Shown here: piece after piece, positions 2,650-57,817 of the stretch | Layout: each line of letters begins with the position of its first letter | Position numbering within the stretch: the stretch's first letter is position 1 | Assembly: GCA_029267445.1 (NCBI GenBank) | Contig: JAJUIU010000015.1 | Location: forward strand, 1-58,227 | Direction: 5' to 3' | DNA from: Rhodospirillaceae bacterium | Lineage (GTDB): Bacteria; Pseudomonadota; Alphaproteobacteria; Azospirillales; Azospirillaceae | Length of the DNA: 58,227 nucleotides | Position numbers and translations under genes: made by a program | The notes under the pieces: generated by a model | What the model was told of the DNA's origin: nothing | Seen by the model: the letters and a program-made list of their open reading frames with translations, nothing else | The model's database searches: none

Positions 2650-2760
2650 CCTCGCCCTTCGACAGGCTCAGGGTGAGGGACTTCACGGTGAGCAGCGCTC
2701 CTGAACGGGGCGTTGCCATGGGCATCACCCACCCCTCACCCTGAGCCTGTCGAAGGGGGA
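2650..2760. repeat. Inverted pair of CTTCGACAGGCTCAGGGTGAG palindromic repeats
   Basis: Copy 1 (2650-2679) contains CTTCGACAGGCTCAGGGTGAG. Copy 2 (2731-2760) is its reverse complement, so the two can fold into one long hairpin with a loop of about 50 nt. The pair sits between convergent genes (EEP protein and ctaA), where such an element could act on both transcripts. Two further inverted pairs occur inside genes at 8961-9043 and 56292-56421. Confidence 0.9.
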
Positions 2761-2792
2761 GATCGGTTCTTCGCCGTCCATCCGTCCAGCGG

Positions 2793-3878
2793 CTACGCCG
2801 CCTCCGGCCGGGCCAGCTCGTGGAAGCACCAGACGATCAGGGCCACCAGCACGAAGGCCCCGCCCTGGTGGGCCGCCGCCAGCGGGATCCAGACGAAGCT
2901 GAGCAGGGTGGAGATGCCGAGCAGCACCTGCACGCCCATCATCGCCGCCAGCGCCAGGGCCAGCGTGCGCAGCCGCCCCTCCGCCCCGCCCTTGACCACC
3001 CGCCAGCACCAGGCCCAGACGGCGAGGCCGGTCAGGATGGCCAGCCAGCGGTGGGTGAACTGCACGGCGGCCGTGTTCTCCACGAAGTTCACGGCGGCGG
3101 GCGACAGGTTCCACATCTCCGGCGGGGCGAAGGTGCCGGCCATCAGCGGCCAGGTGTTGTAGGCGTGACCCGCGTCCATGCCGGCGACGAAGGCGCCCCA
3201 GACGATGGTGATCGACAGGAGCGCCGTCGCGGCCCACAGATGGCCGGAGAGCGCCCCGGCCCGCGATGGCCGCATCCCCGCCGGGCGCGGGTCCAGCACG
3301 TCCAGCGCCACCTTGAACAGCAGCGCGAAGATGATGAAGGCCACACCCAGGTGCAGGGCCAGCCGGTAGTGGCTGACGTCCGTGCGGTCGACCAGGCCCG
3401 ACTGCACCATGAACCAGCCGAGGAAGCCCTGCAGCCCGCCCAGCGCGAACAGGCCCAGGCCCTTCCACTTCAGCTCCCGCGTCAGGCGGCCGGTGGCCCA
3501 GAACCAGACGAACGGGACGAAGAAGACGAGGCCGATCAGCCGGCCCCATAGGCGGTGGAACCACTCCCAGAAATAGATGTACTTGAATTCGTCCAGGCTC
3601 ATGCCCCGGTTGATCACCTGGTACTCCGGGATCTGCCGGTACTTCTCGAACTCGGCCAGCCACTGCGCCTCGTTCAGGGGCGGCAGCGTGCCGGTGATCG
3701 GCCGCCATTCGGTGATGCTGAGCCCGCTTTCCGTCAGCCGGGTGATGGCGCCGATGATGGCCATGGCGAAGACCATGCCGGCACAGGCGAGCAGCCACGC
3801 GCCCACGGCGCGGGTGGCCCGCGCGGCCTTGTCGCTGATGCCGCCGGCGGCGGCCCGGTCGAGGGTGGCGGTGGTCAC
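2793..3878 (-). CDS. ctaA: Heme A synthase (CtaA/COX15)
   Basis: This 361-residue integral membrane protein converts heme O to heme A for aa3-type cytochrome oxidases. Family hallmarks are visible: a first transmembrane segment followed by GAITRLTESGLSITEW, then EFEKYRQIPEY, the heme-ligand segment FWEWFHRLWGR, a second set of helices with SHYRLALHLG, and FTHRWLAI and AHQGGAF near the C-terminus. Length fits alphaproteobacterial CtaA. The start is the GTG at 3878, with a weak GGAAG upstream. It converges with the EEP gene and has no other cytochrome-oxidase assembly gene beside it. Confidence 0.95.
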   Translation of the reverse strand: MTTATLDRAAAGGISDKAARATRAVGAWLLACAGMVFAMAIIGAITRLTESGLSITEWRPITGTLPPLNEAQWLAEFEKYRQIPEYQVINRGMSLDEFKYIYFWEWFHRLWGRLIGLVFFVPFVWFWATGRLTRELKWKGLGLFALGGLQGFLGWFMVQSGLVDRTDVSHYRLALHLGVAFIIFALLFKVALDVLDPRPAGMRPSRAGALSGHLWAATALLSITIVWGAFVAGMDAGHAYNTWPLMAGTFAPPEMWNLSPAAVNFVENTAAVQFTHRWLAILTGLAVWAWCWRVVKGGAEGRLRTLALALAAMMGVQVLLGISTLLSFVWIPLAAAHQGGAFVLVALIVWCFHELARPEAA

Positions 3879-3921
3879 GGCAACGGGTCTTCCGGATGGT
3901 TCGCGACGCCGATATGGACCC

Positions 3922-3939
3922 TGACCACCCCCGTGGTCA
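3922..3939. promoter_or_regulatory. Perfect dyad upstream of ctaA
   Basis: TGACCAC and GTGGTCA flank a 4-nt CCCC centre, 44 bp upstream of the ctaA start. The placement suits an operator or a leader hairpin. No regulator is identifiable. Confidence 0.35.
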
Positions 3940-3947
3940 AACCCTTG

Positions 3948-3976
3948 CGACCCGGCGTCGCGGGGACGCCGGGTCG
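3948..3976 (-). terminator. Strong hairpin after oligopeptidase B gene
   Basis: CGACCCGGCGTC (3948-3959) and GACGCCGGGTCG (3965-3976) form a perfect 12-bp stem with a 5-nt loop, 11 bp beyond the ptrB stop. There is no T-run, so it may be an imperfect terminator or a 3'-end stabiliser. Confidence 0.5.
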
Positions 3977-3986
3977 TCGAGCCCCC

Positions 3987-6236
3987 TCACTCCACCCCGT
4001 GCGCCCGCAGCAGGAAGGCCTGGGCGAGCGCGATCTCCTTCAGCCGGTCGAACCGGCCGGAGGCGCCGCCATGGCCGGCCCCCAGGTTGGTGTAGGAGAG
4101 CAGGACGTTGTCGTCCGTCTTGCGCGCCCGCAGCAGGGCCGCCCACTTCGCCGGCTCCCAATAGGTCACCTGGCTGTCGGCGATGCCGGCGGTCATCAGC
4201 ACGTGCGGGTAGGGCCGCGCCGTGACGTTGTCGTAGGGGCTGTAGGACTTCAGACGGAAATAGGCGTCGGGCTCGTTGGGGTTGCCCCACTCGTCATACT
4301 CGCCCTCGGTCAGGGGCAGCGTGTCGTCCAGCATGGTGGTGACCACGTCGACGAAGGGCACGTAGGCGACGGCCGCCCCGTACAGCCCCTCCGGCGCCAT
4401 GTTCATCACGGCACCCACCAGCAACCCGCCGGCGGACCCGCCGGACATGCTGATGTTGCCGGGCTTGGCGAAGCCCTTCTCCACCAGGAACTGGGTGGCG
4501 TCGATGAAGTCGGTGAAGGTGTTGACCTTGTGCTCCAGCTTCCCGTTCTCGTACCAGGCGCGGCCCAGGTCGTCGCCGCCGCGCACATGCAGGATGGCGT
4601 AGGCGAAACCCCGGTTCAGCAGCGACAGCGCGGTGGTGGAGAAGGTCGGGTCGGTGCCGAACCCGTAGGAGCCGTAGCCGTAGACGTGCAGCGGGGCGGA
4701 CCCGTCGGTCGGGCGGTCCTTGCGGTAGACGATGCTGATCGGGATCATCGTCTTGCCGTCGCGGGCCGGGGCCATCAGCCGCTCCGACGTGTACAGGCTG
4801 GCGTCGTAGCCGCTGGGGATCTCCTGCACCTTGCGCACGGTCAGCGTCCGCGCGGCCATGTCGTAGTCGTAGGTGGTCGGCGGTGTGACCATCGACTGGT
4901 ATCCCAGGCGCAGCACGTCGGTGTCGTAATGCTCGTTGGCGCCCGCGAACACCGTGAAGGCGGCATCCGGGAAGGCGATCGTGTGCTCGTTCCCGGCCGC
5001 GTCGCGCACCCGCACCCGGTCCTGTCCGTCCACCTTGTCGAACACGACCAGCCAGTTGCGGAAGGCGAGCACGCCGGTGATGTAGACGTGGTCGTCGCCG
5101 GGGATCACCTCCACCCAGTTCTCCTTGCGCGGATCGGCGGCCGGGGCGCGGACGAGGCGGAAGTTCCGGTGGGTGTCGTTGGTGCGGATCCAGAGGGTGT
5201 CGCCCTGGTTGGTGACGTAGGTCTCCACGAAGGGCTTGCGCTCCACGAACAGGGTGGGCGTCGCCTCCGGCTGGTCGGCCGGCAGCAGCCGCACCTCGTT
5301 GGTGGCGTTGTTGTCGGAGTAGATGACGATCCGCTCGCCCGACAGGGTGCGCGTCAGGCCGACGGTCCAGGGGCCGTCCGGCTCCGCGTGCACCACGGCG
5401 TCGTTGCCGGGGGCGCTGCCCATGGCATGGCGCATGACCTTCTTCGGGCGGATGTTCTCGTCCTGCAGGGTGTAGAACAGGTGCCTGCCGTCGGCCGACC
5501 AGGCGATGGAGGCACTGCTGGTCTCCGTCAGGTCGGGCAGGTATTCGCCGGTCTGCAGGTCCTTGATCCGGACCGTGAATCGGATCGATCCGTCGTCATC
5601 CTCCGCATAGGCGAGGTAGCGGCCGTCCGGGCTGGGCGTCAGCGAGGCCACGCGGATGTAGCCAGTCCGCTCGGCCAGCTGGTTCACGTCCAGGATGGTG
5701 GTGAACTCCCCGGCGGAGCCCCAGGGGCGGCGCACGAAGATCGGGTACTGCTTGCCGGTCTCGAATCGCGACTGGTACTCCCAGTCGCCCTCGCGGTAGG
5801 GCACGCCAGTGTCGTCCTGCTTGATGCGGCCCAGCAGCTCGTCGAACAGGGCCTTGCGCAGGCCCTCGTCCTCCTTGCCCAGAACCTGCTCGATGTAGGC
5901 GTTCTCCGCCTTCAGGTGGTCCAGGATCGGCGCGTCGTCCACGGTGGGATAGTCGGGATCGCGCAGCCAGAAATAGGGGTCGACGCGGACATCGCCATGC
6001 TTCTCGAGCTTGGTTTCGATGACGGTGGCGACCGGCACGGGGCCGAAACTGCTCTGCTGGAACGGCACTGTCTTCCTGTCCTCCGTTGCGGCCTCGGCCG
6101 CCGGGGCCGCCGTGGCCTTCGACGCGGCGGCGGAGTTCGCGGCCGAGACCTGATCGAACGCGATGTAGGTTAAACCAACCACTGCCGCACCGAGGAATAC
6201 GGTGACCGCACCCTTGCCCAACGCCGAACCCGACAT
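3987..6236 (-). CDS. ptrB: Oligopeptidase B-type S9A serine peptidase, exported or membrane-anchored
   Basis: A 749-residue prolyl-oligopeptidase-family protein, beta-propeller first and alpha/beta hydrolase second. The catalytic triad is readable: Ser601 in SGGSAGGLL, Asp687 in TAGIADSQV and His722 in GAGHGGASG. The Ser-Asp and Asp-His spacings of 86 and 35 match oligopeptidase B, which cleaves short peptides after basic residues. I chose the ATG at 6236, preceded by GGGAGCGGGC. The new N-terminus (VTVFLGAAVVGLTYIAF) is a signal peptide or anchor, unlike the cytosolic E. coli enzyme, and an Ala-rich linker follows. The frame extends upstream to 6470, but that part has no family similarity. 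Confidence 0.92.
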   Translation of the reverse strand: MSGSALGKGAVTVFLGAAVVGLTYIAFDQVSAANSAAASKATAAPAAEAATEDRKTVPFQQSSFGPVPVATVIETKLEKHGDVRVDPYFWLRDPDYPTVDDAPILDHLKAENAYIEQVLGKEDEGLRKALFDELLGRIKQDDTGVPYREGDWEYQSRFETGKQYPIFVRRPWGSAGEFTTILDVNQLAERTGYIRVASLTPSPDGRYLAYAEDDDGSIRFTVRIKDLQTGEYLPDLTETSSASIAWSADGRHLFYTLQDENIRPKKVMRHAMGSAPGNDAVVHAEPDGPWTVGLTRTLSGERIVIYSDNNATNEVRLLPADQPEATPTLFVERKPFVETYVTNQGDTLWIRTNDTHRNFRLVRAPAADPRKENWVEVIPGDDHVYITGVLAFRNWLVVFDKVDGQDRVRVRDAAGNEHTIAFPDAAFTVFAGANEHYDTDVLRLGYQSMVTPPTTYDYDMAARTLTVRKVQEIPSGYDASLYTSERLMAPARDGKTMIPISIVYRKDRPTDGSAPLHVYGYGSYGFGTDPTFSTTALSLLNRGFAYAILHVRGGDDLGRAWYENGKLEHKVNTFTDFIDATQFLVEKGFAKPGNISMSGGSAGGLLVGAVMNMAPEGLYGAAVAYVPFVDVVTTMLDDTLPLTEGEYDEWGNPNEPDAYFRLKSYSPYDNVTARPYPHVLMTAGIADSQVTYWEPAKWAALLRARKTDDNVLLSYTNLGAGHGGASGRFDRLKEIALAQAFLLRAHGVE

Positions 6237-6496
6237 GCCAGCCCGCTCCCTGAATTGACGAACCGGAACGACAATATGGGTGCCCCGTCCGTTCGGCCAT
6301 ACCCTTCTGGGTGCCGCTTCGACATCGCGGGATCGATGGGCGGCGTCTTGCCACAGGGCGGACCGGCGGATGGACCCGATGATGCGGAGGGCGAACTTGT
6401 ACACCCCGAAGGATTGCGCCATGTCAACGACGGGGCGCACGGCAGCCGGAAATCTGGCATGCTTCCGCAAGCGCCACGGAACCGTTCACCGGCCTC

Positions 6497-9400
6497 ATGA
6501 TGACCGACCTGACCCTCGCCTTCGGCCTCGCCTTCACGGACCTTTACGACCGCGACGGTCTGGTGCGCATCGACAAGCGGTTCCTCGACCATCTGCGGGA
6601 GGCTGACGCCGCGCTTCACACCCGCCTGCTGGCCGGCCGCGCCGATCCGGACGCGCTGGAGCCCAAGGCGGAAAGCGACCTGCTGATCGCCCTGGGCCCG
6701 CACCTGGACGATTTCCTGGGCGCCTTGTTCGGCATCCGGGCGGAACTGACGGCGTTGCAGGCGAAGCACCGGGAGCTGGCGCCGCTCTACACCGTGAAGC
6801 GGCTGTTCGTGCAGCGCCGCGCGGCCAAGGCCGTGGCGCCGGAGGAGGCGGCCACCCTCGACCCCGCCCACCTGCTCCAGACCCTGGACCTTCCCGCCGA
6901 TCCCGGCACCCCCGCCTTCGAACTGGCCTTCGCGCATGCCGTCACCGCGTGGGAGGCGGACGAGGCCGCGAACGCCGCGAAGCTGGACGCCGCCGCCCGC
7001 TACGCCGCCTGGGCCCTGCATGCGCCTGAGGGTCGCGCCGTGCACGGTTCCGGCCTGCTGTTCCAGGTGCCGCGCAAGACGGACCCGATGAACCTCGTCC
7101 ATCCCGAGACGATCGAGGTCGACGGGGTCACCATGCTCCAGCTGCCGTGGGAGAAGCGGCGGCACCGGGAAGGCTTCGCCCTGACCGACGCGGGTGCGGA
7201 CCTCGCGGGGGCTCTCGATCAGGCGAACTACTGCATTTGGTGCCACAACCAGGGCAAGGACAGCTGCTCAAAGGGGCTGAGGGACCGCAAGACGGGCGAG
7301 TTCCAGAAGTCGCCCTTCGGCGTCACGCTGGCGGGCTGCCCGCTGGAGGAGAAGATCAGCGAGTTCCACGCGCTGAAGGCGGAGGGGCACCCGGTCGGGG
7401 CGCTGGCCATGATCGCTGTGGACAACCCGCTCTGCGCGGCCACGGGCCACCGCATCTGCAACGACTGCATGAAGTCCTGCATCTACCAGAAGCAGCAGCC
7501 GGTCGACATCCCGCAGGCGGAGACGCGGACGCTCAAGGATGTGCTGGCCCTGCCCTGGGGCTTCGAGATTTATGGCCTGCTGACCCGGTGGAACCCGCTG
7601 AACCTGCGCCGCCCGCTGCCCCGGCCGGACAGCGGCTACAAGGTGCTGGTGGTGGGGCTGGGGCCGGCCGGCTTCAACCTGTCGCACCACCTGATGAACG
7701 ACGGGCACACGGTCGTCGCAATCGACGGGCTGAAGATCGAGCCGCTGCGGCCGGAGGTGAGCGGCGTCGATCCGCTGGGCAACCGGGTGCCGTTCCGCCC
7801 GATCCGGGACATCGCGTCCTTGCGCGAACCGCTGGACGACCGGGTGATGGCCGGCTTCGGCGGCGTGGCGGAGTACGGGATCACCGTCCGCTGGGACAAG
7901 AACTTCCTGAAGATCGTCCGCCTGCTGCTGGAACGGCGGGCCGCCTTCGCAATGATCGGCGGGGTGCGCTTCGGCGGCACCCTCACCATCGACGACGCCT
8001 TCGCGGCCGGGTTCGACCATGTCGCCCTGTGCATGGGTGCGGGCCGCCCGACCGTGATCCCGATGAGGAACGGCCTCGCCCGCGGCGTGCGGCAGGCGTC
8101 CGACTTCCTGATGGCGCTGCAGCTCACGGGGGCGGCCCGGCTGGACACGCTGGCGAACCTGGAGGTGCGCCTGCCCATCGTCGTCGTGGGTGGTGGGCTG
8201 ACCGCCATCGACACCGCGACCGAGAGCCTCGCCTACTATCCGGTGCAGGTGGAGAAGTTCCTCCAGCGGCACGAGGCGCTGGCGGCGGAGATCGGGGTGG
8301 AAGCCCTGCGCGCCCGCTGGACGGAGGAGGAGCGGGAGGTCGCGGACGAGTTCATCGCCCACGCCCGAGCCCTGCGCGCCGAGCGCGAGGCCGCCGCGCG
8401 GGAGGGCCGGGCGCCGCGCATCCAGGCGCTGCTGACGGAATGGGGCGGTGCCACCCTGGCCTATCGCCGCCGCATGGTGGACGCGCCCAGCTACACCCTG
8501 AACCACGAGGAGGTGGAGAAGGGCTTCGAGGAGGGCATCCGCTTCGTCGAGACCGCCACGCCCACCGCCGTGGAGGTGGACCGGTACGGCCACGCGTCGG
8601 GCCTGACGGTGACGCTGGGCGACGGCAGGGCGAAGACCCTGCCCGCCCGCACCATCCTGATCGCCGCCGGAACCCAGCCGAACACCGTGCTGGCGCGGGA
8701 AGACGGCCGGATCGAGCTGGACGGCAAGTATTTCCGCGCCCTGGACACGGACGGCAGGCCGGTGACGCCGGAGCGCCTGTCCAAGCCGGCGGCGGTGCAT
8801 GTGCTGATGCACGGGGCGGGCGACGGCCGGTTCGTCAGCTTCTTCGGCGATCTGCACCCCAGCTTCGCCGGCAACGTGGTGAAGGCCATGGGCGGGGCCA
8901 AGCAGGGCTACCCGGTGGTGAGCCGCATCCTGGCGGGGCGGCCGCCGGTCGAACTTCAAACCTCGCCCTTCGACGGGCTCAGGGTGAGGTCGGAGGGGAC
9001 GACCGCCGCAACCGGCCCTCATCCCGAGCCTGTCGAGGGAGGGGGCCGGCGCACGCCCGCGCAGACGCTGATCGCCCGCATGAACCAGGAACTCCGCGCC
9101 GTGGTGGAGCGGGTGGAGCGGCTGACGCCGACCATCATCGAGGTGGTGGTGCGCGCCCCCCGCGCCGCGCGGCGGTTCGAGCCGGGGCAGTTCTACCGCC
9201 TGCAGAACTTCGAGGTGCTGGCGCCCAAGGCCGCCGGCACCACGCTCGCCATGGAGGGCCTCGCCCTGACCGGCGCCTGGGTGGACAAGGACCAGGGCCT
9301 GCTCTCCACCATCGTGCTGGAGATGGGCGGCAGCTCCGACCTCTGCGCCTACTTGAAGCCCGGCGAGCCGGTGATCCTGATGGGTCCGACGGGCGAGCCG

Positions 9401-10072
9401 ACGGAGATCCCGGCCGGGGAGACGCTGTGCCTCGTGGGCGGGGGTCTCGGCAACGCGGTGCTGTTCTCGATCGGGCAGGCGGCGCGGGCCAAGGGCAACC
9501 GGGTCGTCTACTTCGCCGGCTACAAGAAGCTGATCGACCGCTACAAGGTGGAGCAGATCGAGGCGGCGGCCGACGAGGTGATCTGGTGCAGCGACGAGGC
9601 CCCCGGCTTCGCGCCCACCCGGCCGCGGGACAAGAGCTTCGTCGGCAACATCGTGCAGGCGATGGTCGCCTATGCGGAGGGGCGTTTAGGCGAACCGGGC
9701 GTGTCGCTGGTGGAGGTTGACCGCATCGTCGCCATCGGCTCCGACCGGATGATGGCCGCCGTGGCCCAGGCCCGGCACGGGGTGCTGGCCCCGCATCTGA
9801 AGCCGGGCCATGTCGGCATCGGCTCCATCAACTCCCCCATGCAGTGCATGATGAAGGAGATCTGCGCCCAGTGCCTCCAGCTCCACAAGGACCCGGTGAC
9901 GGGGGAGGAGACGGTGGTGTTCTCCTGCTTCAACCAGGACCAGAGCCTGGACCGGGTGGACTGGGGCGTGCTGCGCGAGCGGCTGGGCCAGAACAGCGTG
10001 CAGGAGAAGCTGACCGCCGCCTGGATCGACCGCTGCCTGGGCGTGCGCCCCTGGCGGCAGGCGGCGGAGTAG
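6497..10072 (+). CDS. Fused GltD-like/PyrK-like iron-sulfur flavoprotein oxidoreductase
   Basis: This 1191-residue protein combines two modules. The first resembles the glutamate synthase small subunit: cysteine clusters near residues 246-257 (CIWCHNQGKDSC) and in RICNDCMKSC for iron-sulfur centres, an FAD-binding VVGLGPAGFNL near 385 and an NAD(P)-binding VVVGGGLTAID near 561. The second resembles the electron-transfer subunit of dihydroorotate dehydrogenase B: a ferredoxin-reductase fold, CLVGGGLGNAVLF near 978, and a C-x5-C-x2-C-x17-C cluster at Cys1117, 1123, 1126 and 1144, likely for [2Fe-2S]. The architecture suggests NAD(P)H-linked transfer of electrons to an unknown acceptor. The linker between modules (residues about 822-849) is encoded by a palindromic repeat pair. 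The ATG at 6497 has no obvious ribosome site; a second ATG follows immediately. Confidence 0.85.
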   Translation: MMTDLTLAFGLAFTDLYDRDGLVRIDKRFLDHLREADAALHTRLLAGRADPDALEPKAESDLLIALGPHLDDFLGALFGIRAELTALQAKHRELAPLYTVKRLFVQRRAAKAVAPEEAATLDPAHLLQTLDLPADPGTPAFELAFAHAVTAWEADEAANAAKLDAAARYAAWALHAPEGRAVHGSGLLFQVPRKTDPMNLVHPETIEVDGVTMLQLPWEKRRHREGFALTDAGADLAGALDQANYCIWCHNQGKDSCSKGLRDRKTGEFQKSPFGVTLAGCPLEEKISEFHALKAEGHPVGALAMIAVDNPLCAATGHRICNDCMKSCIYQKQQPVDIPQAETRTLKDVLALPWGFEIYGLLTRWNPLNLRRPLPRPDSGYKVLVVGLGPAGFNLSHHLMNDGHTVVAIDGLKIEPLRPEVSGVDPLGNRVPFRPIRDIASLREPLDDRVMAGFGGVAEYGITVRWDKNFLKIVRLLLERRAAFAMIGGVRFGGTLTIDDAFAAGFDHVALCMGAGRPTVIPMRNGLARGVRQASDFLMALQLTGAARLDTLANLEVRLPIVVVGGGLTAIDTATESLAYYPVQVEKFLQRHEALAAEIGVEALRARWTEEEREVADEFIAHARALRAEREAAAREGRAPRIQALLTEWGGATLAYRRRMVDAPSYTLNHEEVEKGFEEGIRFVETATPTAVEVDRYGHASGLTVTLGDGRAKTLPARTILIAAGTQPNTVLAREDGRIELDGKYFRALDTDGRPVTPERLSKPAAVHVLMHGAGDGRFVSFFGDLHPSFAGNVVKAMGGAKQGYPVVSRILAGRPPVELQTSPFDGLRVRSEGTTAATGPHPEPVEGGGRRTPAQTLIARMNQELRAVVERVERLTPTIIEVVVRAPRAARRFEPGQFYRLQNFEVLAPKAAGTTLAMEGLALTGAWVDKDQGLLSTIVLEMGGSSDLCAYLKPGEPVILMGPTGEPTEIPAGETLCLVGGGLGNAVLFSIGQAARAKGNRVVYFAGYKKLIDRYKVEQIEAAADEVIWCSDEAPGFAPTRPRDKSFVGNIVQAMVAYAEGRLGEPGVSLVEVDRIVAIGSDRMMAAVAQARHGVLAPHLKPGHVGIGSINSPMQCMMKEICAQCLQLHKDPVTGEETVVFSCFNQDQSLDRVDWGVLRERLGQNSVQEKLTAAWIDRCLGVRPWRQAAE
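8961..9043. repeat. Inverted palindromic repeat pair inserted in frame in the flavoprotein gene
   Basis: Copy 1 (8961-8989) reads CTTCGACGGGCTCAGGGTGAG. Copy 2 (9016-9043) is the inverse form with CCCGAGCCTGTCGAGG. Both are translated, giving SPFDGLRVRSE and PHPEPVEGGG, and the frame stays open. The site is the junction between the two enzyme modules. Confidence 0.9.
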
Positions 10073-12788: not shown

Positions 12789-13957
12789 GCGGCGGCCTCC
12801 CGTCCCTTCAGGAACCGGTCCAGGCCGAAGCCGGCGATGCGCGGGTCGATGCGGCCGGTCAGCACGAAGTCGGCCACGCAGTCGGCGGTGACCGGGGTCA
12901 ACAGGATGCCGTTGCGATGGTGCCCGGTGGCGAGCACGAGGCCGTCCACACCCGGCACCGGGCCCAGCACCGGCGCGTCGTCCCTGCTGCCGGGGCGGAA
13001 GCCGGTCCACATCTCCGCGATCGGAAGCTCCTCGATGCCGGGGATGGCGCGCCACGCGGCCTCCAGCAGGGCCAGCACCCCGCCGGCCGTGAGGTCGGCG
13101 TTCCAGCCCTTCTCCTCCGTCGTGGCGCCGACGATCAGGGTGCCGTCCGCACGGGGCACGAGATAGCATTTGGGCGCCCAGATCACATGGCTGGCCAGCG
13201 GGGCCGCCGGGTCCATCCGCAGCGACAGCATCTGCCCCTTCACCGGGCGCACGGGCGGCAGCAGCTCCGGCGGCAGGCCGCCGATCCGGCGCGACCAGGC
13301 GCCGGCGGCCAGCACGACCATGTCCGCCCGGCGCACCTCCCCGTTCACCACCACGCCCCGGACGCGCCCGCCGTCCAGCTCCAGCGCGTCCACGGCGAAG
13401 CCCTCGTGGATGGTGCCGCCGGACGCGACGAAGGCGTCGACCAGCGCGGCGGTGACCGCGCGGTTGTCCACCTGCCCGTCGGCCGGGCTGAACACGGCGG
13501 CGGCGGCGCGCGGGTTCAGGTGCGGTTCGCGCTCCTTCGCTTCGGCCCCGTTCAGCCAGTGGAGGTCGAGGCCCAGCTTCCGCTGGAATTCGTAGTTCGT
13601 GCGCAGCAGGGCCACGTCGTCCCGCGTCAGGGCCACGACCAGCGTCCCCTCCCGCCGCAGGCCGACAGGGCGGCCGCTCGCCGCCTTGAGCTCCGCCGCG
13701 AAGCCGGGCCAGAGCGCCTGGCTTTCGCGGCACAGCGGCAGCAGCGGCTGTTCGCCCGGCTCCGCCTCCACCCCGGCGGCCAGCATCCCGGCGGCGGCGT
13801 GGCTGGCGCCCATGCCCACCGGCCCCTTGTCGTAGAGGTCGACCCGGCAGCCGGAAGCGGCCAGCCGCCAGCCGATGGACAGGCCGATGACGCCACCGCC
13901 GATGACGATGACGTGCGGCCTGGAGGATGCGCGTGTTGGGGTGGATGTCGCGGAAAT
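12785..13957 (-). CDS. thiO: Glycine oxidase ThiO with a probable ATT start
   Basis: A flavoprotein of about 390 residues that oxidises glycine to dehydroglycine for ThiG. It has an N-terminal FAD-binding VIVIGGGVIGLSIGWRLA, GASHAAAGML, a DAO-family core and the C-terminal GLVLATGHHRNGILLTPV. The frame stays open through the upstream riboswitch to 14065. Downstream of the aptamer there is no in-frame ATG, GTG or TTG before the FAD motif. An ATT at 13957 has an ideal ribosome site, GGGAGG at 13965-13970 with 7-nt spacing, and is my chosen start. The alternative is an ATG at 13981 inside the aptamer core. Its stop overlaps the thiS start. Confidence 0.85.
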   Translation of the reverse strand: MSATSTPTRASSRPHVIVIGGGVIGLSIGWRLAASGCRVDLYDKGPVGMGASHAAAGMLAAGVEAEPGEQPLLPLCRESQALWPGFAAELKAASGRPVGLRREGTLVVALTRDDVALLRTNYEFQRKLGLDLHWLNGAEAKEREPHLNPRAAAAVFSPADGQVDNRAVTAALVDAFVASGGTIHEGFAVDALELDGGRVRGVVVNGEVRRADMVVLAAGAWSRRIGGLPPELLPPVRPVKGQMLSLRMDPAAPLASHVIWAPKCYLVPRADGTLIVGATTEEKGWNADLTAGGVLALLEAAWRAIPGIEELPIAEMWTGFRPGSRDDAPVLGPVPGVDGLVLATGHHRNGILLTPVTADCVADFVLTGRIDPRIAGFGLDRFLKGREAAA

Positions 13958-13964
13958 CTTGGGA

Positions 13965-14042
13965 CCTCCCTTCGCCGGCATGACCCGGATCAGGTTCGAC
14001 GGGTGTGATCTCAGCCGCCCGCATGGTCGGACGGCACCCCGG
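13965..14042 (-). promoter_or_regulatory. TPP riboswitch (THI element)
   Basis: Read on the minus strand, the conserved THI-box elements occur in order: GGGGTGCCG, GGCTGAGATCAC, ACCCG, GAACCTGATCCGGGTCATGCC and GGCGAAGGGAGG. The 3' AGGGAGG doubles as the apparent ribosome site of thiO, so ligand binding would hide it and repress translation of the thi operon when thiamine pyrophosphate is plentiful. Confidence 0.96.
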
Positions 14043-14113
14043 ATGATGCCCGGATTCATGGACATCCCGGCTCACGAAAGCAAGGGCCTGGAACGCCCGG
14101 ATTCCGCCAAGCT

Positions 14114-55939: not shown

Positions 55940-57817
55940 ATGCCCGATACCGTGTCGAAGACCGAAGAAGCGGCGGACTATCCGCCCACGGCGCGCGGCA
56001 CCAACCTGTTCGACACGGACGTGAACCTGAAGCGCCTGCTGGAATGGCGCGCGCCGGAGACACTGTACCTCCAGGGCGACCGCCTGTCCGACTTCGGCGC
56101 CTGGGCCGGCGGCCCGCTGGACCGGCAGGCCGAACACACCGACCGCTTCGCCCCGCCGCGCCTGGACCCCTACGCACCCGACGGCTCGCGCACGGGCCGC
56201 GTGGTGTTCAATTCCGAGTATCTCGCCTGCCATGCGGAGGCCTACCGCCGGGGCGCCGTCGGCCTGCCCTATGCGGGCCGCGTGCCCGGAACCCTCCCCC
56301 TTCGACAGGCTCAGGGTGAGGGTTCCCATGCGTCTGGCCTCCGGCCCGACTCCCCCTCGCCCCACCCTGAGGCCGCCGTCCCTTCGCCTCACCCTGAGCC
56401 TGTCGAAGGGCGAGGCGAAGGGCTGGGCGAAGGACCGGGCACCGGCGCCTCCCACGTGCCCTGCTTCGTCATGGGCTATCTGCTGTCCCATGCCGACATC
56501 TCCATCCACTGCCCGGTGACCATGACAGGGGCCGTGGCCCACGTGCTGGACCGCCTCGCCCCCGCCGATATCAAGGCGAAGTACCTGCCCGAGCTGGTGC
56601 GGATGGACGGGCGCGCCCTGTCCGGCGGCACCTGGGCGACGGAGCTGCATGGCGGCTCCGACGTCGGCGCCACCACCACCCGGGCGGAGCGGCACAACGA
56701 CGGGTTCCGGCTGCACGGGGTCAAGTGGTTCACCAGCAACGCGGGTTCCGGGCTCGCCCTCGCCACCGCACGGCCCGGCGACGAGCCCGGCGGCAGGGGC
56801 CTCGGCTGCTATCTGGTGCCCAGCCACCTGGATGACGGCACGCCGAACCACTACCGCCCGCGCCGCCTGAAGGAGAAGGCGGGCACCCGCGGCCTCGCCA
56901 CGGCGGAGCTGGACCTGGAGGGCTGCGTGGCGTTCGAGGTGGCGGGACCGCCCGACGGGCTGAGGGTGATGATGGCGGCCCTGGAGTACAGCCGCGTCCA
57001 CAACGCGGTCGGGGCCGCCGGGATGCATCGCCGCGCCTTCCTGGAATCCGCCGGCTGGGCCACCCACCGCATCGCCTTCGGCAACCCGATCCGCCGCTAT
57101 CCCATGGTCCAGGACCAGCTGCTGGACATGCAGATGGAGCTGGAGGCGGGGGTGGCCCTGGCCTTCGAGAGCGTCTTCGCGCTGGACCGGTCGCTCACCG
57201 ATCCCGACGCCGCCGACTGGCTGCGCCTCGCCACCGCGCTCGCCAAGTACCGCACGGCGGAACAGTGCGTACGCGCCTGCCGGCAGGCGGTGGAGATCGT
57301 CGGCGGCAACGGCTACACGGAGGAATGGCCGACGGCGCGGCTCTACCGCGACTGCCTCGTCACCGCCGTGTGGGAGGGGCCGGCCAACATCCAGGCGCTG
57401 GAGCTGCTGCGCCTCGTGACAGGCAGGCGCGCCGGCGACGCCGTCTTCCTCGCCCGCGTCGGCACGGTCCTGTCCGACCTGCCGACCGACAGCCGCATGC
57501 CCGGCGCCTCCGACACCGCCGCCATCCTGGAGGGTGCGATCGAGGAGTGCCGCGCCGCCCTCTCCTACCTCCGCCAGCGCCCCGAGGACGGGCCGCGCCA
57601 CGGCCGGCGCCTGCTGGACCTGATGGCCGACACGCTGGCGGCGGCCCTGCTGGCGGAGGAGGCGGTGGAGGACTTGAAGCTGGGCGACCGCCGCAAATGG
57701 CTGGTGGCCAGCCGCTTCATCGCCAAGGTGCTTGGCCGGGCGGACCCCATCGGCCCCGGCTACGACCCCGCCAATGCGGAATTCGACGCGGTGCTCGCCT
57801 ACGAACCGGTGGATTGA
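55940..57817 (+). CDS. AidB-like acyl-CoA dehydrogenase family protein
   Basis: A 625-residue flavoprotein of the acyl-CoA dehydrogenase superfamily, most like AidB: CPVTMTGAVAHVLDRL, GGTWATELHGGSDVGATTTRA, GVKWFTSNAGSGLALATARP, the central RLKEKAGTRGLATAELDLEG, MVQDQLLDMQMELEAG, EIVGGNGYTEEWPTARLYRD and WEGPANIQALELLR. AidB-type proteins bind FAD and DNA and are tied to the alkylation response in E. coli; the role here is open. Residues about 118-161, just before the core, are encoded by palindromic repeats and should form a disordered insertion. It overlaps the convergent Uma2 gene by 19 bp. Confidence 0.9.
   Translation: MPDTVSKTEEAADYPPTARGTNLFDTDVNLKRLLEWRAPETLYLQGDRLSDFGAWAGGPLDRQAEHTDRFAPPRLDPYAPDGSRTGRVVFNSEYLACHAEAYRRGAVGLPYAGRVPGTLPLRQAQGEGSHASGLRPDSPSPHPEAAVPSPHPEPVEGRGEGLGEGPGTGASHVPCFVMGYLLSHADISIHCPVTMTGAVAHVLDRLAPADIKAKYLPELVRMDGRALSGGTWATELHGGSDVGATTTRAERHNDGFRLHGVKWFTSNAGSGLALATARPGDEPGGRGLGCYLVPSHLDDGTPNHYRPRRLKEKAGTRGLATAELDLEGCVAFEVAGPPDGLRVMMAALEYSRVHNAVGAAGMHRRAFLESAGWATHRIAFGNPIRRYPMVQDQLLDMQMELEAGVALAFESVFALDRSLTDPDAADWLRLATALAKYRTAEQCVRACRQAVEIVGGNGYTEEWPTARLYRDCLVTAVWEGPANIQALELLRLVTGRRAGDAVFLARVGTVLSDLPTDSRMPGASDTAAILEGAIEECRAALSYLRQRPEDGPRHGRRLLDLMADTLAAALLAEEAVEDLKLGDRRKWLVASRFIAKVLGRADPIGPGYDPANAEFDAVLAYEPVD
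56292..56421. repeat. Inverted palindromic repeats inserted in frame in the AidB-like gene
   Basis: Copy 1 (56292-56322) contains CTTCGACAGGCTCAGGGTGAG. Copy 2 (56381-56421) is the inverse, with CTCACCCTGAGCCTGTCGAA. A partial copy, CCCACCCTGAG, lies at 56360-56370. They encode PLRQAQGEGS and PHPEPVEGRGEG without disturbing the frame. Confidence 0.9.

What the first reader, a model, noticed from the sequence alone, without database searches (positions are those of the whole stretch)
56292..56421. Second in-frame insertion of the same repeat, in an AidB-like dehydrogenase
The same family inserted about 44 residues before the conserved catalytic core of an acyl-CoA dehydrogenase, again as an inverted pair plus a partial third copy. 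Copy 1 is read in a different frame from that in the flavoenzyme, while copy 2 gives PHPEPVEG in both. Two independent in-frame cases in 58 kb suggest a coding-tolerant mobile palindrome, comparable in principle to Rickettsia palindromic elements.
Basis: partly seen in the sequence, partly recalled or inferred. Interest (0 to 1): 0.65.

Follow-up and report, generated by a model that had tools for sequence, protein, structure and literature searches.

The report
REP palindrome pair inserted inside genes
A short repeated DNA palindrome that normally sits between genes has here landed inside an enzyme gene without breaking its reading frame; the genome has about five such cases, one in the cell-wall gene murD, but this is rare survival of insertions rather than an element adapted to coding DNA.

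Summary
Window 56293-56415 is an inverted pair of ~29-nt REP hairpins, with a degenerate third copy, read in frame in an AidB-like acyl-CoA dehydrogenase. The 27 aligned relatives lack it; they carry only a short loop there. The genome holds ~74 clusters of this REP family, mostly inverted pairs. About 93% lie outside genes, usually just after stop codons. Five lie inside reading frames, four of them in clear enzymes (AidB-like, the window's flavoenzyme, murD, hydantoinase A/B); relatives lack those inserts too. murD is single-copy and expected to be essential. AlphaFold models the AidB and MurD inserts as low-confidence loops in otherwise confident folds. The element is not specially coding-tolerant: 33% of frames through a pair are open, against 46% for random intergenic DNA. 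In-frame cases are therefore best read as survivors of selection at permissive loops. The 16-nt core is patchy across Alphaproteobacteria (50 of 385 genomes) and shows no link to RAYT-type transposases; none was found in this genome. It lacks the defining GTAG and CGTC tags. In-frame REPs are already described (Di Nocera 2013; Rickettsia RPEs). I file it as a new REP family of a known kind. Unexplained: each hairpin carries its own outer stem.

The parts
55940..57817 (+). AidB-like acyl-CoA dehydrogenase ORF (625 aa) carrying the insertion
   Evidence: coding potential on both sides of the insert in one frame; no significant amino-acid rate acceleration relative to its nearest orthologue
56293..56321 (+). 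REP copy 1 (core 56300-56315), read as LRQAQGE
56288..56326 (.). REP copy 1 with its own 5-bp outer stem GGAAC/GTTCC
   Evidence: (I6)
56346..56372 (-). degenerate third copy, 78% in-register direct repeat of 56373-56399
   Evidence: D1
56387..56415 (-). REP copy 2 (core 56393-56408), read as PHPEPVEG
56380..56422 (.). REP copy 2 with its own 7-bp outer stem CCCTTCG/CGAAGGG
   Evidence: (I3)
8961..9045 (.). second in-frame REP pair of the window, inside the flavoenzyme ORF 6500-10072 (+)
   Evidence: eight orthologues aligned, none carries it
2650..2762 (.). ordinary intergenic REP pair between convergent genes (25 and 30 nt from the two gene ends)

Best explanation
The segment is a dimer (BIME/REPIN-like inverted pair) of a REP family with unit consensus CCTCGCCCTTCGACARGCTCAGGGTGAGG. 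It inserted, lineage-specifically and in frame, into a surface loop of an AidB-like enzyme that already varies in length among orthologues. SHOWN: repeat identity and copy number, mostly intergenic placement, insertion absent from orthologues, in-frame continuity, the same kind of event in three other enzymes including single-copy murD. INFERRED: insertions fall widely; those that break a frame or hit structured protein are lost; the few that survive in genes are those whose length and frame happen to be open and whose site is a flexible loop. The inserted peptide is a neutral, probably disordered loop without function of its own. Intergenic copies sit just downstream of genes as typical REPs do. 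How copies spread is not shown; no RAYT/IS200-type transposase was found in this genome, so spread by a lost or unrelated enzyme, or by replication template switching at hairpins, remains open.
For: 161 copies of the core within 2 mismatches against 12 for the control; 125-copy consensus. 60 of 72 neighbouring copy pairs are '+-' inverted. 74 clusters: 40 tandem-intergenic, 15 convergent, 3 divergent, 11 at contig ends, 5 inside ORFs; median 29 nt to a neighbouring stop and 90 nt to a start. AidB: insert absent in 27 aligned orthologue rows, whose loop there varies in length. MurD: about 42-aa insert in the Mur ligase middle domain, absent in 28 orthologue rows, no second murD in the genome. 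Flavoenzyme and hydantoinase inserts absent in 8 and 13 orthologues. AlphaFold: AidB 122-168 and MurD 216-254 are pLDDT < 50 within otherwise confident folds. Relative-rate tests show no significant acceleration in aidB, murD or the flavoenzyme. About 0.33 x 0.33 = 0.11 of random insertions would be in frame and open, yet all internal cases found are.
Against: Only five intragenic cases, so selection statistics are thin, and a frame-broken gene is harder to recognise than an intact one. Two genes end inside an element (L121, L130) and could be truncated; the 227-aa gene in L130 has no Pfam match. Hydantoinase A/B shows some rate acceleration (chi-square 6.2). Activity and expression of the interrupted enzymes cannot be shown here. 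No same-genus genome was available, so the insertion event is not seen at close range.
Confidence: 0.85

Rival explanations
1. Coding-adapted mobile palindrome: the repeat is shaped to stay open in many frames and spreads into genes as peptide-making modules, as proposed for Rickettsia palindromic elements.
For: Four enzymes carry it in frame, one of them single-copy murD. Copy 2 is often read as PHPEPVEG.
Against: Only 5 of 74 clusters are in ORFs; frames are less open than random intergenic DNA (33% vs 46%); the consensus unit has stops in two of six frames; several frames are used (LRQAQGE, FDGLRVR, FDKLSVR, PHPEPVEG, LTLSPSKG); 0 of 20 clusters in genes in a second genome.
Confidence: 0.08
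2. The segment is an ancestral part of AidB lost in relatives, or a protein-level low-complexity expansion, not a DNA insertion.
For: The loop is length-variable in the family.
Against: The DNA is the genome-wide repeat with inverted symmetry; all relatives lack it; unrelated enzymes carry the same DNA in different frames.
Confidence: 0.02
3. RAYT-mobilised REPIN: a REP-associated tyrosine transposase (now lost or missed in the draft assembly) spreads these dimers.
For: Dimers look like REPINs/BIMEs; RAYTs are the proposed mobilisers of GTAG REPs (PMC3733652).
Against: No Y1_Tnp in this genome although controls ring. Y1_Tnp occurs in 5 of 18 core-rich and 13 of 44 core-free genomes. No core copy in the fetched stretches around the nine Y1_Tnp loci examined in core-rich genomes.
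Confidence: 0.15
4. The family spreads and grows by DNA-hairpin template switching during replication, without a dedicated transposase; copy-specific outer stems are its trace.
For: Bases just outside the conserved unit pair with each other copy by copy: 99%, 95% and 73% for the first three outer pairs against 41%, 50% and 36% expected; mean extension 3.6 bp against 0.76 shuffled. Template switching in replication is reported to create and maintain hairpins (PMC8794818, abstract only). The murD insert is bracketed by a 10-bp inverted repeat whose left arm is host coding sequence.
Against: Inverted repeats around whole insertions are not in excess overall. Insertion into pre-existing small palindromes, reported for other REPs (PMC3733652), or compensatory evolution would give similar stems. 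Copies in G603 show conserved outer sequence instead.
Confidence: 0.2

Closest known systems
REP / BIME / REPIN elements in general
   Same: 20-40 nt hairpins, >100 copies, mostly inverted dimers, intergenic, near gene ends, avoiding divergent promoter regions
   Different: No associated RAYT found; each copy has its own outer stem; core shared patchily across distant families
CGTC-tagged REPs (Di Nocera et al. 2013, PMC3733652), which include Rickettsia RPE-4 and RPE-6
   Same: Mainly alphaproteobacterial, mostly dimeric, no associated transposase, sometimes inside genes
   Different: No fixed unpaired CGTC/TGTC tag, no CCA tail, no 4-5 nt loop; stem and loop do not match the CGTC definition
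Rickettsia palindromic elements (RPE)
   Same: Palindromic repeats read in frame inside apparently working proteins
   Different: Here intragenic copies are about 7% of clusters; sequence not shown to be related
GTAG REPs and REPINs with RAYT
   Same: Inverted dimers, copy number
   Different: No GTAG tag, no RAYT found

Membership tests
REP (general definition as in PMC12306157) | Short, palindromic, highly similar, many copies, mostly outside genes | tested here: met
   definition
BIME / REP dimers | Neighbouring copies in inverted orientation | tested here: met
   60 of 72 neighbouring pairs are '+-'
CGTC superfamily | Unpaired CGTC/TGTC/CCTC tag at one end, 8-9 bp stem starting with A/T pairs, 4-5 nt loop, CCA tail | tested here: not met
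   Consensus CCTC-G-CCCT-(11 nt)-AGGG-T-GAGG; its CCTC end can pair with GAGG, so it is not an unpaired tag
GTAG REPs | GTAG at one end | tested here: not met
RAYT-mobilised REPIN | RAYT gene in the genome and flanked by the REP | tested here: not met
   the draft assembly leaves some doubt
RPE-like in-frame element | Lineage-specific insertion read through in frame in conserved proteins | tested here: met
RPE-like in-frame element | Interrupted protein is expressed and active | not testable with these tools
   needs proteomics or enzyme assay

The most novel reading that the evidence does not exclude
A REP family that spreads without any transposase, by hairpin-primed template switching during replication, leaving copy-specific outer stems copied from neighbouring host DNA, and that can lengthen single-copy essential enzymes such as MurD by tens of residues.
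Probability: 0.15. Interest if true: 0.7.

Novelty: new member of a known kind. Interest (0 to 1): 0.38.

Why it matters
It adds a widely but patchily distributed REP family, for which I found no description and no transposase partner, with clean in-frame insertions in conserved enzymes including single-copy murD. That gives natural insertion mutants for testing how proteins gain new loops, and a case for asking how REPs without RAYTs move.

Tried and rejected
(1) Inverted repeats flanking whole insertions as a general insertion signature: tested against shuffled flank pairs, no excess; only murD stands out with 10 bp. (2) RAYT association: none. (3) The first coding classifier was contaminated by antisense ORFs and was replaced by a GC-seeded, iterated model. 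(4) An apparent intragenic hit in an MFS gene (L080:4062) was dropped as a chance weak match: the flanks of the core do not match the unit. (5) No held paper contains the core sequence or PHPEPVEG. (7) Rfam: no match at the element. (8) One region request for G603 was mostly outside the contig.

Full report
WHAT IS THERE. The ORF at 55940-57817 (+) encodes a 625-aa AidB-like acyl-CoA dehydrogenase: AidB_N at 15-117 and ACAD middle and C-terminal domains at 231-488. Inside it, 56293-56321 and 56387-56415 are 29-nt arms, 97% complementary, 65 nt apart, with a degenerate third copy at 56346-56372. The strand folds into a long hairpin (z = -4.7). Copy 1 reads LRQAQGE and copy 2 PHPEPVEG; in the window's other case (8961-9045, flavoenzyme) copy 1 reads FDGLRVR and copy 2 again PHPEPVEG.

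FAMILY IN THE GENOME. The core CTTCGACAGGCTCAGG occurs 161 times with up to two mismatches against 12 for the reversed control. From 125 copies the unit is CCTC(G/C)CCCTTCGACA(G/A)GCTCAGGGTGAGG, an imperfect hairpin. Copies come mostly as inverted '+-' pairs (60 of 72 neighbouring pairs). I fetched the listed clusters with flanks, trained a gene caller on them and placed the clusters: of 74 clusters kept, 40 lie between tandem genes, 15 between convergent genes, 3 between divergent genes, 11 at contig ends, and 5 inside ORFs. Gaps over 20 nt in the same loci are 253 tandem, 44 convergent and 78 divergent, so convergent gaps are favoured and divergent ones avoided. The median distance is 29 nt to a neighbouring stop codon and 90 nt to a start. 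This is ordinary REP behaviour, in sequence that is about 85% coding. Some two-mismatch copies were not listed by the search, so the cluster count is a slight underestimate.

INSERTIONS INSIDE GENES. Besides the two in the window, in-frame copies lie in murD (three units, 41 aa), in a fused hydantoinase A/B (one unit next to another repeat family) and in a small ORF without known domain. Orthologues show clean insertions. The AidB insert is absent from all 27 aligned rows (some species may appear twice), where the same loop varies in length. The murD insert lies in the Mur ligase middle domain, about nine residues after K204 of the conserved AAK motif, and is absent in 28 rows. Flavoenzyme and hydantoinase inserts are absent in 8 and 13 orthologues. 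The genome has no second murD, and murD is expected to be essential (established knowledge), so the interrupted version very likely works. AlphaFold models put the AidB (122-168) and MurD (216-254) inserts at pLDDT below 50 within folds of mean pLDDT 81 and 89; as the aligned relatives lack the inserts, low confidence there is expected in part for that reason. Relative-rate tests show no significant speed-up in aidB, murD or the flavoenzyme since divergence from their nearest orthologue (chi-square 0.4, 1.3, 0.7); hydantoinase shows some (6.2).

IS IT CODING-TOLERANT? No more than other local DNA. Through 54 dimers, 33% of six frames are open, against 46% for random intergenic 117-mers; the consensus unit has stops in two of six frames. 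A random insertion would be in frame and open about 0.11 of the time. The internal cases found are all in frame, as expected if broken genes are lost. Two genes end inside an element (L121, L130) and may be extended or truncated. In a second core-rich genome (G603) none of 20 clusters is in a gene. I therefore read the in-frame cases as survivors at permissive loops. Small numbers and the difficulty of recognising broken genes are the main weakness.

DISTRIBUTION AND MOVEMENT. The exact core is in 50 of 385 alphaproteobacterial genomes, patchily (0-132 copies; reversed control zero), and in 25 of 299 genomes of a phylum-wide draw, including other classes. This genome has 110 exact copies while the four same-family genomes sampled have 0-3, which fits recent expansion or acquisition. 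Plasmid hits name Nitratireductor, Phyllobacterium, Sphingobium, Novosphingobium and Comamonas. No Y1_Tnp (RAYT/IS200) is found in this genome; presence is 5 of 18 in core-rich and 13 of 44 in core-free genomes, and the nine Y1_Tnp loci examined in core-rich genomes had no core copy in the fetched flanks. This resembles CGTC REPs, which 'apparently lack a dedicated transposase' (PMC3733652).

AN UNEXPLAINED FEATURE. The bases just outside the unit pair with each other copy by copy: 99%, 95%, 73%, 46% and 48% for successive pairs against 41%, 50%, 36%, 25% and 25% expected, with all four Watson-Crick types present; mean extension 3.6 bp against 0.76 for shuffled flanks. AidB has 5 and 7 bp, one murD unit 7, the small ORF 6 and 6, so selection for a terminator is not needed. 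Template switching, insertion into small host palindromes, and compensatory change are all possible. Inverted repeats around whole insertions are not in general excess, and copies in G603 have conserved rather than copy-specific outer sequence (read by eye).

COMPARISON. By definition and behaviour this is a REP family with BIME-like dimers. It does not meet the tag and loop features of the GTAG or CGTC superfamilies. Intragenic REPs, often as dimers coding 20-30 residues, are already described, including RPE-4 and RPE-6 of Rickettsia (PMC3733652). I found no paper holding this core, in a library that lacks most subscription journals. Verdict: new member of a known kind, with a useful example in a gene expected to be essential and an unexplained stem feature.

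Noticed in passing
L110:4928-5048 (gene 4144-5685, -): Three REP units in frame in the only murD of the genome, with a 10-bp inverted repeat GGCGTTCCGT/ACGGAACGCC around the insert.
   Followed up: yes
L111:5059-5300 (gene 3242-7063, +): The hydantoinase A/B gene holds this REP plus a second repeated sequence (LSPARGEGE... PLPRAGEGGERSEPGEG), parts of which match elsewhere in the genome (C97, C27, C153, C116), also in frame.
   Followed up: partly
own genome, 99 copies (AidB copies at window 56288-56326 and 56380-56422): Copy-specific outer stems that covary around each REP unit.
   Followed up: partly
L085:4943, L087:4896, L090:4933, L122:4726; second copies in L095 and L129: Hybrid copies in which one outer arm is replaced by a shared stretch like TTCGGCGTCCGCTGAAGCGACGACARGCTCAGG; looks like a composite of two repeat families.
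   Followed up: no
L112 about 2880-2910: CGTCATTCCCGCGAAAGCGGGAA motif next to the REP pair; from memory it resembles dRS3/CGTC-1 repeats.
   Followed up: no
G603 loci L321-L341: Same core but dimers in the opposite '-+' arrangement with conserved outer sequence CCGTAG/CCGTTTG; all 20 clusters intergenic.
   Followed up: partly
window 13950-14051 (-): TPP riboswitch, 63.2 bits.
   Followed up: no
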